This document shows, piece by piece, positions 1 to 57,902 of a DNA stretch of 64,000 bases. The notes under the pieces were generated by a model. That model saw only the letters and a program-made list of their open reading frames with translations. It was not told the origin of the DNA and did not search any database. Numbering within the stretch: the stretch's first letter is position 1; each line of letters starts with the position of its first letter. The position numbers were made by a program, and so were the translations under genes. Origin of the DNA: Tetradesmus obliquus (lineage: Eukaryota > Chlorophyta > Chlorophyceae > Sphaeropleales > Scenedesmaceae); assembly GCA_030272155.1 (NCBI GenBank), contig CP126196.1:4092001-4156000 (forward strand). The letters run 5' to 3'.

Positions 1-758
1 CTCGGTGAGTGGCAGCCTTTGAAGTATAGACAGTTTTTATGGTAGGAGGTGTGAAGGCGCATGGGGTGTCCTCAATCACACACACACACACACACACACA
101 CGCACGCACGCACGCACGCACGCACGCTTGGTGGATTGGATGTGGCAGGCGCCTGGCGGCGGCGGCCCAGCTGAGGTGGGTCGTGGCGACAGCGAGGAGC
201 TGCGCGGTCAACATGTCCACCGTGCTGGACGGCTGAGCAACATACCATGCTCACCTGCTTTCTTTTTGCACCCACCTGCATTGCTGCGAAATACCCTGCT
301 GTGCTCTGCTGCAGATGCTGGGCCGTGGCGACACCGAGGAGCGCGCGGTCAACCTGGCCACCGTGCTGGACGGCTACTTCACCAAGGGCGGGCACCACGT
401 GAACATCAACGTGCTGAACAGGGAGATGCTGCAGGACGCCGTGCAGGTGCGGCTTGTTGTTTGACACTAGTTACGTATGTTTCGCGTAAACATCAACGTC
501 TCGACAGATGACAGGCAGATGCTGCAAGACACCATGAAGGTGTGTGTAGGCCACCATACATCACGCCGCAGCACCTGCTTAATGTCTGCTTTGCTCATTC
601 TGCCAGCTGCGCTGCTGCTGCTTTGCTCTCCTCTGCAGCACCCTGAGAAGTACCCCAACTTGACCATCCGCGTGAGCGGCTACGCGGTGCACTTCACCAA
701 GCTGACCCCCGAGCAGCAGAAGGATGTCATTGCACGCACCTTCCACGCTGAGATGTAA
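1..758 (+). CDS. PFL1: pyruvate formate-lyase, C-terminal exons (partial)
   Basis: Glycyl-radical enzyme that splits pyruvate with CoA into acetyl-CoA and formate in algal dark fermentation; green-algal forms act in chloroplast and mitochondrion (family knowledge). Two exons are clear: 315-446 and 639-758. They encode the end of the glycyl-radical domain, with [10 protein letters not shown], the HPEKYPNLT segment and the radical loop RVSGYAV, whose Gly carries the radical. The protein ends in RTFHAEM, close to the bacterial PflB end. The intron between them has a GTGCGG donor and a CTCTGCAG acceptor. A donor-like CTCG|GTGAGT at positions 1-10 suggests that the window opens at the end of an upstream exon. 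The rest of the gene lies left of the window. Degraded copies of exon 315-446 flank it on both sides. The activase gene follows on the same strand. Confidence 0.95.
78..127. repeat. bipartite (CA)n(CGCA)n microsatellite
   Basis: About 23 bases of CA repeat pass directly into CGCA repeats inside a lyase intron. Alternating purine-pyrimidine sequence of this kind can adopt Z-DNA. The same two-part structure, on the opposite strand, is in PIG-A intron 4. Confidence 0.95.
176..236 (+). pseudogene. degraded copy of lyase exon 315-446, 5' part
   Basis: This intronic segment closely matches bases 320-372 of the functional exon (GTCGTGGCGACAGCGAGGAG against GCCGTGGCGACACCGAGGAG), including the part encoding ATVLDG. 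It then runs into a TGA and cannot continue the protein. It lies upstream of the exon, as acceptor-side copies mostly do in this window. Confidence 0.8.
487..548 (+). pseudogene. degraded copy of lyase exon 315-446, 3' part with donor
   Basis: The segment reads VNINV then MLQD, like the end of exon 315-446, and finishes with a GGTGTG donor-like border. The spacing matches but several substitutions separate it from the true exon. It lies just downstream of that exon, inside the last intron. Confidence 0.7.
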
Positions 759-1525
759 GCACCATGCAGATGGTGTGCTGCTTGGTGAGATCTGTGCTGT
801 TGTGCAGCGCCTGCATGCAAGCAATGGTTTGTGGCTTTGTCTTTGTCGGGGCAGTTTGCTGGCGGATGCATCAAAGGAGTCGAGTTGTACCTTGTACTCA
901 TGCTGGGCTTTGGGATGTTGGGTGCCTTCTGCCCCACTGGAACATAATGCAGAGCAGCAGCGGCAGAGGTGTGCCGGGTTGCATGCAGGAGCGTCACTGG
1001 ATGACAGCTGCACACTGGATGGCAGCTTCGACGAAAGCGGCCATCTAGCTTCAGTGAAAGCTTTGGACTGGTTTTGATGGGATGATGGCTCAGTAGGGCT
1101 GCTGTCTTATCACCGGTTTCTTTGTGGTATGCCAGCATGGCTTATCAAGGGAGGTTGTTGCTGGCAAATGCCAGCTTCGGCATTGAATAGCTTGTGCGGG
1201 TTTGCTTTGCTTCACTTGACTAGTAAAAATTTGCTCAGTCGTCTGTGTGTATGGCGTGCAAGTGCGCCTTCAGTACTTGTTTGTGGTGTCTGCTTGAGTT
1301 ATGGCTGATGTGATGCTGGCAGTAGTGCTGTGGTTGGCGAACCATGCCAATTCTGCCAGTAACAAAGAGATCATCCAAGCATGGATGGCAGCGCAACGAG
1401 GTGCTGATCTTGTGTTTGTGCACGTGCATGTCGCATGTGCCTTGCTTTTGTATTGCCGGCAGTAGCATGCAGACCAGAATGTAGATTTGTGGGTGCCTTG
1501 TGTACTGTGATTGCTGGCTTGTCTC

Positions 1526-56300: not shown

Positions 56301-57902
56301 AACCGCAGCAGCCTGCAGTGCAGCGCTGCATACAGCGGCAACATCTGTGGCGCATGCGCCAAGGGTTTTGGCTCAACAAAGCCCTTCCACTGCAAGGTTT
56401 GCATGCGGCCAGGTGTTATTGTTGCACTTTATGTCTCTGGCGATGTTGTGCTCCTTGCAATCATCAAGTTGATGTGCCATTTCACCCTTGCTGAGAACTT
56501 TGCGGACCAGCAGAACGAGCGCAAGCAGCATGTGTCAGCTTTGTTGCGGTGCCTTGTGCTGTACTCTCAGTGGATGCTGCTGATCGCATCATTGAACATT
56601 GACTGGCCAGCACCCATTTCATACCCCGTTCAGATGCTGGGATGGCTGTGGGCACCCTCAAACCCTGAGACACTCGGCATTGACTGTCTCTTGTCTAACA
56701 ACAGCCGTGTGCCGATTGCCATTCAGCGTGTTGTGTTTCACTTGAGTGTACCGCTGGTAATGCTGGCGTTGCTGCTGCTGGAGCTGCTGCTGATGAAAGT
56801 GAAGCAGAAGCGCGCTACAGCTGCTGCTTCTATGGCCGATCGGCTGGGCAGCAGCGCCATGGTTGTTGTTTTCTTCTTCCTGCCAGGTGTGCTGAGGACT
56901 GTGTTTGGGCTGTTTGCTTGCATACCACTTGACAGGCCTGCAGTAGCACCACGCACAGCAGCAGCAGTCGGCTCCTTTTGGGTCTATGATGTCAGCACTG
57001 TCTGCTTCGAGACACGCTGGCACAGAGCGCTAACTCTCGGCCTAGGCCTGCCGCTTGTGCTGCTGCTGTGCATCGGGCTACCTGATGCCATTGTGTACAT
57101 CACTGTCTCAAACCGCAGCCGACTTGATGACCCGGCTTTCCTGCAGCATTGGGGCTTCCTTGCACGCTCATATCGAGCTCGCATTTGTTGGTGGGAAGCA
57201 GCCATAGTCATCATCATCATGTTACCATTTAAGTCATAGCAACGTCGCCATCGGCCCCGCGCCCCACAGGAGCGGCTGGATGAACAGGCGAAGGGGAAGC
57301 AGCCATAGTGTGCCAGACAATAGCACTGGTTGCTGTCAGCATATTCGGCGTCAACATGGGCTCATTCTACCAGTGTGTTGTGATGACAGCAGTCCTAGCC
57401 GTGTTCATGTTCTGCAGGCCTTGAAGCTGTTTGCATTTGGTGAAGCAGGCCGGGCGATGCTGCGAGGTGTGCAATGCCTGCTGCTGACAAGCTATGTTGG
57501 GCTTGCGCTGCAGCAGGCCAGCCAAACCAGCAGTAGCAGCAAGGCAAGTGTCACACGGCCCGGTGCGGCTGCGTATGGCATAGCTGTGGGGGCCCTGCTG
57601 CTGTTGGTGAATGCGGCTTTTGTCTGCTCTGTGCTGTGGCAGCTGGTGAGGCATGTTGACTGGCAGGAGCTATGGGGCAAGGTCAGCAGGTGCAGGGAAA
57701 CAGCGCATGCATGGATGGGGGTTCTCGAACGAATCATGCATGTGTGGTTGATGTTGCACAGGCACTGCTAGCTGTGCAAGCGCTTGTAGCCATGTTCCAT
57801 GTGTACACACTGCATGTGAGGCCTGGTCATGGCTTTATGCCATGGTTTTGCATCGCTAATGTAATCGTGACCTGCTTGACTGGCTTGTACTACATGTTGT
57901 AG
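50368..57902 (+). CDS. surface protein with beta-helix repeats, Cys-rich module and TRP-like membrane domain
   Basis: Signal peptide MGLLLSCCVCTLPCCAQ at 50368. A long ectodomain follows, with many degenerate repeats of the type CxFxxNxAxxxGGAI (for example CVFENNAATE at 51514, CLFRQNSATYGGAIYMDD and CTFRGNQASTSGAAF near 52952-53070, STFDSNQAGDGGAM, TITSLVVHNNTAQYQGGGIS, STIQYNAARIGGGIA), typical of right-handed parallel beta-helix or Pmp-like proteins. Many exons carry one or two repeats. Near 55600-56400 is a Cys-rich module (CEPCLPGFYTLDPAAAVCSG, CPDAAACQGD, NICGACAKGF, CKVCM). From 56400 follow several spans, including ALYVSGDVVLLAII, FHLSVPLVMLALLLLELLLM, MVVVFFFLPGVLRTVFGLFA and GLGLPLVLLLCIGLPDAIVY, then RARICWWEAAIV, a signature of the algal and protist TRP-like family. 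Probably a mechanosensory or adhesion receptor (inference). The exon joins at 51.1-51.5 and 57.2-57.4 kb are uncertain; the frame changes near 57412. Confidence 0.8.
51460..51498 (+). repeat. (CTG)n intron end before the exon starting ANITDCVFEN
   Basis: Some ten CTG units precede a GTCCAG acceptor, as in other genes of the window. Confidence 0.85.
52331..52670 (+). repeat. 47-base minisatellite with acceptor- and donor-like sites
   Basis: Seven units start about every 47 bases (52331, 52378, 52425, 52472, 52519, 52566, 52613). Each contains GCCGT(A/G)AGCAGGAGCAT, a TATGATG core and a pyrimidine-rich CGCCCAGCAG end. GTAAGC or GTGAGC resembles a donor, and the CCCAGCAG end resembles an acceptor. 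The first three units differ from each other and from the last four, which are almost identical, a gradient typical of unequal exchange at one end. Confidence 0.95.
54955..55003 (+). repeat. (CTG)n intron end before exon 55004
   Basis: Ten CTG units, then CCTCATTGCTGCTGCAG, form the 3' end of the intron before the exon starting VSIFNSSIAWN. Confidence 0.9.
57288..57312 (+). pseudogene. repeat of the exon segment encoding WEAAIV
   Basis: GGGAAGCAGCCATAGTGTGC resembles TGGGAAGCAGCCATAGTCAT at 57190. This one is in frame with the next conserved segment (TIALVAVSIFGVNMGSFYQ), so it may be the functional version and the first may be intronic, or the reverse. Which copy is exon cannot be settled from sequence. 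Confidence 0.6.

What the first reader, a model, noticed from the sequence alone, without database searches (positions are those of the whole stretch)
1..57902. Splice junctions are systematically reiterated inside the introns of nearly every gene
At least 35 diverged copies of local exon edges can be seen by eye in eight unrelated genes on both strands. Each copy spans a splice junction. In most cases donor-type copies (exon 3' end plus GT) lie downstream of their exon and acceptor-type copies (AG plus exon 5' end) upstream, so the pre-mRNA presents serial candidate sites. Identity ranges from perfect (4207-4242) to barely visible, which indicates a continuing process. Ordinary random tandem duplication would not always centre on exon-intron borders. 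Possible causes are repair of breaks at CAG/CTG tracts, replication slippage, or a splicing-linked or reverse-transcription-linked copying step. I know of no described system that does this genome-wide.
Basis: partly seen in the sequence, partly recalled or inferred. Interest (0 to 1): 0.9.

Follow-up and report, generated by a model that had tools for sequence, protein, structure and literature searches.

The report
Exon edges copied inside algal introns
In this green-alga genome, small pieces of DNA around the edges of gene segments are often duplicated about 120 letters away, which leaves extra copies of splice sites inside introns; the copies are real, and their cause is only partly explained.

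Summary
In 314 kb (window plus 25 fetched 10-kb loci; size and contig number match Tetradesmus obliquus), repeats within 300 bp are 191 direct against 3 inverted. Copies favour splice borders: 156 of 588 border segments are hit, against 8 of 94 exon centres, 29 of 226 intron centres and 42 of 557 intergenic segments. Where one border and a non-exonic partner are involved, the copy lies intronward in 52 of 53 families. 'Nearly every gene' is too strong: 26 of 42 gene models, very unevenly.

The base process is tandem duplication with a unit of mostly 95-155 bp, often serial, seen outside exons too. Selection and a conserved exon copy explain the direction and part of the border bias, but not all. 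Many copies end 0-10 bp past the exon edge (45 of 93 pairs, about 6 expected), and in 22 of 37 border pairs the intron side shows no significant similarity although the exon side is 78-100% identical. Neutral and gene-conversion simulations did not reproduce this. CAG/CTG tracts are not enriched. No RNA or strain data were available.

The parts
177..375 (+). acceptor-side copy of a pyruvate formate-lyase exon start (177-234) upstream of the exon copy (319-375), offset 142
   Evidence: 91% identity; Gly_radical domain
4090..4127 (+). exon 3' end plus donor of the PFL-activating enzyme (functional copy; exon 4001-4119)
   Evidence: spliced model gives an intact radical-SAM protein
4207..4244 (+). 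perfect intronic copy of exon end plus donor, offset 117; weak residual similarity of the spacer to the right flank
   Evidence: 38 of 38 bases; spacer test
9468..9785 (-). methyltransferase gene: intronic copy 9468-9527 of exon segment 9726-9785, offset 258
   Evidence: 92% identity; Methyltransf_25
9778..10055 (-). methyltransferase gene: exon 9778-9861 and intronic copy 9975-10055, offset 197
   Evidence: 77% identity, mismatches by codon position 2,3,11
10179..10347 (-). donor-type copy 10179-10240 of exon end 10286-10347, offset 107
   Evidence: 89% identity
10760..10978 (-). donor-type copy 10760-10833 of exon end 10905-10978, offset 145
   Evidence: 92% identity
11700..12321 (-). two near-complete copies of one exon (11928-12073, 12176-12321), offset 248, plus a shorter third copy at 11700-11752
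   Evidence: 92% identity
12329..12664 (-). acceptor-type copy 12558-12664 of exon 12329-12436, offset 229, with a one-base indel
   Evidence: 85% identity; whole-genome search finds only this exon besides itself
25909..26112 (+). acceptor-type copy 25909-25998 of exon start 26023-26112, offset 114
   Evidence: 89% identity
28378..29099 (+). serial copies of a kinase-gene exon with donor, offsets 118-507
31745..32078 (+). two copies of a kinase exon with donor, offset 239
   Evidence: 90% identity; Pkinase
33138..33331 (+). donor-type pair, offset 145, 48 of 49 bases identical, no significant similarity in spacer or intron flank
37150..37536 (+). three serial copies of acceptor plus exon start (sulfotransferase-like region; name recalled from reading the translation, no Pfam hit for the one ORF tested), unit about 120
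40587..40744 (-). RPL19: acceptor-type pair, offset 106
   Evidence: 90% identity; Ribosomal_L19e_C
41217..41394 (-). RPL19: donor-type pair, offset 110
   Evidence: 84% identity
45007..45217 (+). PIGA: donor-type pair, offset 133
   Evidence: 94% identity; PIGA domain
45619..46281 (+). PIGA: exon end and a 110-bp intronic copy, offset 553
   Evidence: 86% identity; whole-genome search finds only this exon besides itself
46465..47392 (+). PIGA: array of about 7 units of 132-135 bp, each a CTG tract, acceptor and first bases of the exon; the last unit is continuous with the exon
   Evidence: relative's protein has one copy
48158..48443 (+). PIGA: acceptor-type series, offset 222 with a middle copy at 48277-48327

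Best explanation
The genome undergoes frequent local tandem duplication with a unit of about 120 bp, often repeated in series, most likely by repair or fill-in at closely spaced breaks or nicks (inferred). Duplications inside exons are mostly lost because they break the reading frame (inferred). Those across a donor or acceptor survive when the outer copy stays in the intron. The exon copy is held by selection, so the exon edge plus splice signal remains recognisable while the rest of the unit fades. Shown: local direct copies, preferred offset, serial units, border excess, intronward direction. Inferred: the repair mechanism. Not explained by this alone: copies that end at the splice signal while their exon part is still highly similar, often above 90%. 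The most likely added factor is that intron sequence turns over, or is exchanged between diverged alleles, far faster than exon sequence (inferred).
For: Direct 149, inverted 3, shuffled 0 in one replicate. Offset spread 20 bp against 32 for shuffled pairings (d up to 170), length-gap correlation -0.73 against -0.31, and 28 of 48 pairs at 195-300 bp have a significant middle copy. 42 of 51 contiguous families have units of 86-153 bp. 52 of 53 single-border families are intronward. 15 of 37 border pairs keep similarity 10-70 bp into the intron (about 2 expected), and 12 of 38 spaced pairs keep spacer similarity (about 2 expected). In 23 pairs with at least 30 aligned intron columns, intron divergence is 13.7% and codon positions 1 and 2 are 6.9% and 5.3%, as expected if only the intronic copy drifts. 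Three of three tested copies match only themselves and the neighbouring exon in the genome. In one recent paralogue pair, two exons differ by 0.6% and 1.4% while the intron between them differs by 16.5% and another intron cannot be aligned.
Against: Simulated neutral duplication gives 2 of 63 and 6 of 52 exon-edge pairs with identity at least 93% and a gap of at least 25; observed 10 of 12 (the simulation used 40 bits, the observed families 45). Near-side ends fall 0-10 bp past the exon edge in 45 of 93 pairs, 6 expected. A gene-conversion version also failed: 12-37% of high-identity pairs and a near-end fraction of 0.14-0.28. Pairs with few intron columns look no older than pairs with many (third-position divergence 17.8% and 19.8%), which argues that the intron part was never copied in them. 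The intron-turnover factor rests on one paralogue pair, in which non-coding sequence downstream of the gene differs by only 0.8-5.5%, so regional conversion could explain it.
Confidence: 0.45

Rival explanations
1. A copying step that is aware of splice junctions, for example templated by nascent RNA or guided by structures at splice sites, copies only the exon edge up to the splice signal to a place about 120 bp away.
For: In 22 donor-type pairs ungapped identity is 0.77-0.95 over the first six intron bases, 0.55-0.59 over the next three and 0.36-0.45 after that. Near ends cluster at 0-10 bp (45 of 93). No significant intron similarity in 22 of 37 pairs. Pairs with few intron columns are no older by the third-position clock.
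Against: Similar offsets in pairs classed intronic and intergenic and in contiguous arrays. Donor and acceptor types equally common, so no transcription polarity. 15 of 37 pairs do include intron, and the flagship pair 4090/4207 has weak spacer similarity. No RNA-specific hallmark was looked for.
Confidence: 0.15
2. The copies are kept by selection because they act in alternative splicing or as decoy splice sites.
For: Splice signals are conserved in the copies to about the same level as the exon part. Mismatches are biased to codon position 3 (100, 93, 263 in 68 pairs; ratio 2.73, 95% 2.27-3.38).
Against: Copies carry frameshifts (12 of 17 indels in 36 pairs not a multiple of 3). Donor positions are no better kept than the exon part. 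The position-3 bias is the same in contiguous and spaced pairs (2.90 and 2.97). Many offsets are not multiples of 3 (for example 113, 134, 145).
Confidence: 0.12
3. The intronic copy and its flank come from a diverged allele, by unequal or out-of-register exchange between haplotypes whose exons pair but whose introns do not.
For: Would explain the edge at the splice signal and unalignable flanks. A relative, Scenedesmus sp. [quoted passage not shown] Most PIGA array copies keep residues of that relative's protein at three sites where the window's last, exon-continuous copy differs.
Against: Some pairs are 97-100% identical in the exon part yet have flanks without significant similarity, needing extreme intron divergence. 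No excess of position-3 differences in pairs lacking intron columns. No second haplotype could be searched.
Confidence: 0.15
4. Old tandem duplications whose exon part is kept alike by local gene conversion with the exon.
For: Mismatches are clumped (dispersion 1.02 against 0.72 for permuted positions, 0 of 2000 permutations, 38 pairs). Nearer copies resemble the exon more than farther ones (36 of 413 and 55 of 416 differences, 9 trios).
Against: Simulation gave exon-edge to intron-only ratios of 1.1-1.2 and did not produce the edge clustering.
Confidence: 0.1

Closest known systems
Repair-mediated duplications by capture of proximal DNA in vertebrates (Pace et al. 2009, PMC2671141; abstract and part 1 of 3 of Results read)
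   Same: Short local copies more than 50 bp from their source, attributed to break repair; the abstract lists intron splice sites among duplicated sequences.
   Different: There the proximal copies are up to 619 bp, mean 162, within 5 kb. Here there is a preferred offset of about 120 bp, serial units, and enrichment at splice borders.
Small tandem duplications from fill-in at break ends (PMC8355091; passages read; the rice patch-repair paper was seen there only as reference 14)
   Same: Local direct duplications from repair of closely spaced breaks.
   Different: That paper speaks of insertions below 100 bp and used 50-bp overhangs in one substrate. Here units are mostly 95-155 bp and many pairs show only part of the unit.
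Intron gain by tandem genomic duplication (potato RdRp case, PMC4974935; search listing with start of abstract only)
   Same: A tandem duplication in a gene makes extra splice sites.
   Different: No new intron is inferred here; existing introns receive extra copies of neighbouring borders.
Short paired duplications or 'doublets' in mammals (Thomas et al., recalled; not read)
   Same: Short spaced direct copies close together.
   Different: No splice-border link is recalled.

Membership tests
Short local tandem duplication | Direct orientation, copies adjacent or in register | tested here: met
   191 direct, 3 inverted; preferred offset and middle copies
Short local tandem duplication | The whole unit is duplicated | tested here: inconclusive
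   51 of 126 families contiguous, 75 spaced; intron side not significantly similar in 22 of 37 border pairs; spacer similarity in 12 of 38
Short local tandem duplication | Shape of the border copies explained by selection and neutral decay | tested here: not met
   simulations
Repair-mediated duplication (Pace et al.) | Donor within 5 kb and more than 50 bp from acceptor | tested here: met
   for spaced pairs: median gap 113 bp in 93 exon/non-exon pairs; not for the 51 contiguous families
Repair-mediated duplication (Pace et al.) | Microhomology, filler or deletion at breakpoints shown against an empty site | not testable with these tools
   no related genome or second haplotype held; the genome search states the genome has no relatives here
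Tandem genomic duplication intron gain | New intron between two AGGT copies, confirmed by RNA | not testable with these tools
   no RNA data
Functional alternative splice sites | Copies used in mature RNA | not testable with these tools
   no RNA data; the relative's annotated PIGA protein contains one copy only

The most novel reading that the evidence does not exclude
A splice-junction-aware copying process: in this alga, exon edges are copied up to the end of the donor or acceptor signal and placed about one fixed step (about 120 bp) away in the neighbouring intron, without the intron sequence in between. This would link splicing or nascent RNA to a recurrent DNA duplication process.
Probability: 0.15. 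Interest if true: 0.92.

Novelty: new variant of a known kind. Interest (0 to 1): 0.6.

Why it matters
It shows a genome in which about a quarter of the tested splice borders (156 of 588) overlap a recognisable local copy, so introns carry many spare splice sites. That is raw material for alternative splicing, new exons and gene-model errors, and a natural record of short tandem duplication. If the sharp ends at the splice signals hold up in strain comparisons, it would point to a mutational process coupled to splice junctions. The other 17-contig T. obliquus assembly listed in PMC12571836 (GCA_030272055.1) and RNA data would make it directly testable.

Tried and rejected
CAG/CTG tracts as the driver: tracts are not enriched around exon-touching families (limited because repeat-rich pairs were filtered out). 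Copies from other loci: three copies searched against the whole genome matched only themselves and the neighbouring exon. Templated insertion of random length at a random distance: copy length and gap are not independent and the offset is preferred. Neutral tandem duplication alone and anchored gene conversion do not reproduce the edges. Coding constraint on the copies: the codon-position bias is the same in contiguous and spaced pairs and fits faster third positions. Longer introns where copies occur: medians 367 and 294, means 386 and 411, p 0.74. One gene-finder run degenerated on CTG repeats and the next allowed zero-length exons; both were replaced. Endpoint composition gave no clear motif. 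That call also listed pairs counted as non-exonic; reading them, several look like copies of copies or missed exons, so my intron-only counts are probably too high. Paper searches touching exon-edge copies listed no paper whose title or abstract start describes a border-linked system; only a part of each hit list was shown and the library holds only open-licence papers.
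Full report
What was examined. The window lies at G000:C6:4092001-4156000 in a 104,662,953-base, 17-contig genome. A published table lists a Tetradesmus obliquus assembly of 104.70 Mb in 17 contigs, GC 56.5% (GCA_030272155.1, PMC12571836, passages read), so the organism is very probably T. 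obliquus (inferred from size). The nearest listed PIGA protein is from Scenedesmus sp. NREL 46B-D3, 93% identical. I fetched twenty 10-kb loci at fixed positions on contigs C1-C10 and five on C11-C15, giving 314 kb with the window.

Gene models. No annotation was available, so I trained a small HMM gene finder from the PFL-activating-enzyme gene, whose seven exons splice to an intact protein. It gave 40 genes and 307 exons in 264 kb; in 314 kb, 646 borders, 56.0 kb exon, 129.3 kb intron and 128.7 kb intergenic. Pfam supports the glycyl-radical end of PFL, the radical-SAM activase, a methyltransferase, a kinase, RPL19 and PIGA. A UbiA match and a Beta_helix match are just below their cut-offs, and the sulfotransferase-like ORF had no hit. 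Errors are known: one model fuses neighbours (21339-38618) and at least one exon is missed (about 38145).

The copies exist. In 264 kb, pairs within 300 bp at 45 bits or more number 149 direct, 3 inverted, and 0 in one locally shuffled replicate; in 314 kb 191 and 3. They form 126 families (distance up to 1 kb), 96 touching an exon; the window has 37 families, 26 touching an exon. Families were found in 18 of 25 fetched loci, on all 15 sampled contigs.

They sit at borders. Of 60-bp segments, 87 of 301 donors and 69 of 287 acceptors overlap a copy by at least 25 bp, against 8 of 94 exon centres, 29 of 226 intron centres and 42 of 557 intergenic segments; odds ratios 3.9, 2.5 and 4.4. The excess over intron centres is modest, partly because the intronic copies themselves count as intron. 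Among families with one border and a non-exonic partner, 52 of 53 lie intronward. Genes differ: one model has 15 exon-touching pairs, while models with 10, 15 and 19 exons have none; 26 of 42 models with at least 3 exons have at least one, and the spread exceeds chance (p 0.008).

The unit. Offsets cluster at 95-155 bp, with a second group at 200-300. Permuting gaps among 140 pairs breaks this (SD of offsets up to 170 bp: 20 against 32; 51 pairs at 95-155 against 33 expected). Of 48 pairs at 195-300 bp, 28 have a significant middle copy, mostly near half the distance. Of 51 contiguous families, 42 have units of 86-153 bp. Spaced exon/intron pairs outside arrays show the same register (56 pairs, p 0.0024). 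Pairs classed intronic and intergenic with d up to 170 have similar means, 119.5 (n 14) and 122.9 (n 7) against 120.1 (n 37) for exon/non-exon pairs. So the base event looks like tandem duplication of about 120 bp, not confined to genes; some 'intronic' pairs are probably copies of exon copies.

What selection explains. A duplication inside an exon usually breaks the frame. One across a border leaves the coding path intact if the copy is in the intron, which gives the direction. The exon copy is frozen, so the pair stays visible longer. In a simulation this gave a 1.4-1.5-fold detectability gain (483 of 1000 and 170 of 500 at low indel rate; 328 of 1000 and 112 of 500 at high); observed families within 300 bp were 65 exon/non-exon and 28 without exon. 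Where at least 30 intron columns are aligned (23 pairs), intron divergence is 13.7% and codon positions 1 and 2 are 6.9% and 5.3%, as expected for one drifting copy.

What it does not explain. Near-side ends fall 0-10 bp past the exon edge in 45 of 93 pairs (264 kb, families not collapsed), with 6 expected for random placement; ends more than 10 bp inside the exon are 7 against about 60 expected. In 22 donor-type pairs ungapped identity is 0.77-0.95 over the first six intron bases, then 0.55-0.59 over three, then 0.36-0.45. Only 15 of 37 pairs keep significant similarity at +10 to +70; the other 22 have exon sides 78-100% identical. A second test finds spacer similarity in 12 of 38 pairs, about 2 expected, including the flagship pair 4090/4207, which the first test had missed. 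Exon-edge pairs with identity at least 93% have a gap of at least 25 in 10 of 12 cases, against 2 of 63 and 6 of 52 simulated. For pairs without exon the gap measure is closer to the simulation (43% against 24% and 41%), with only 3 high-identity cases. Pairs with few intron columns are no more diverged at third positions than pairs with many (17.8% and 19.8%). A gene-conversion model did not reproduce the edges either, although mismatches are clumped.

Intron turnover. One pair of recent inverted kinase paralogues (L029, L030) shows exons at 0.6% and 1.4% difference, the intron between them at 16.5% plus large indels, and a further intron that cannot be aligned (56% mismatch) next to an exon at 12.5%; non-coding sequence downstream differs by 0.8-5.5%. 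Intron sequence may therefore be lost much faster than exon sequence, but it is one case and regional conversion could confuse it.

Codon pattern. Mismatches fall 100, 93 and 263 by codon position in 68 pairs, ratio 2.73 (2.27-3.38), above the 1.72 I expected for a neutral copy with equal site rates. The same bias is found in contiguous pairs (2.90, 18 pairs) and spaced pairs (2.97, 46 pairs), so faster third positions are a sufficient reading. Frameshifting indels (12 of 17 in 36 pairs) argue against present coding use.

Verdict. The finding is a real, uneven feature across the sampled genome: tandem duplication with a unit near 120 bp that leaves copies of exon edges in introns. Much of it fits known repair-type duplication under selection. 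The sharp ends at splice signals are an open result that strain and RNA data could settle.

Noticed in passing
46465-47392: PIGA array of about 7 acceptor-plus-exon units; most array copies keep residues found in the relative's protein (EPYPNQP, GSPITI) where the last, presumably functional, copy has changed.
   Followed up: partly
21453-21688: 33-bp unit repeated 7.2 times, each with a donor-like GGTGAG; a serial donor array overlapping the end of a predicted exon.
   Followed up: no
52369-52668: 47-bp minisatellite, 6.4 copies, some 2 kb before a beta-helix-like ORF.
   Followed up: no
45922-46132: Long GTGC tract, about 53 units, in a predicted PIGA intron.
   Followed up: no
21833-22179 and 45621-45841: Two of the few inverted repeats of the window (94.5% and 93.6% identity).
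   Followed up: no
140-758 and 3177-5855: The pyruvate formate-lyase end and its activating enzyme lie next to each other on the same strand.
   Followed up: partly
L029 1-3500, L030 1-3500: Recent inverted kinase paralogues whose exons are nearly identical while introns are strongly diverged; the well-aligned block starts near an exon acceptor.
   Followed up: partly
L006, L015, L016, L013, L011: Multi-exon gene models (7-19 exons) with no exon-edge copies, against 15 pairs in the L019 gene: strong unevenness between genes.
   Followed up: partly
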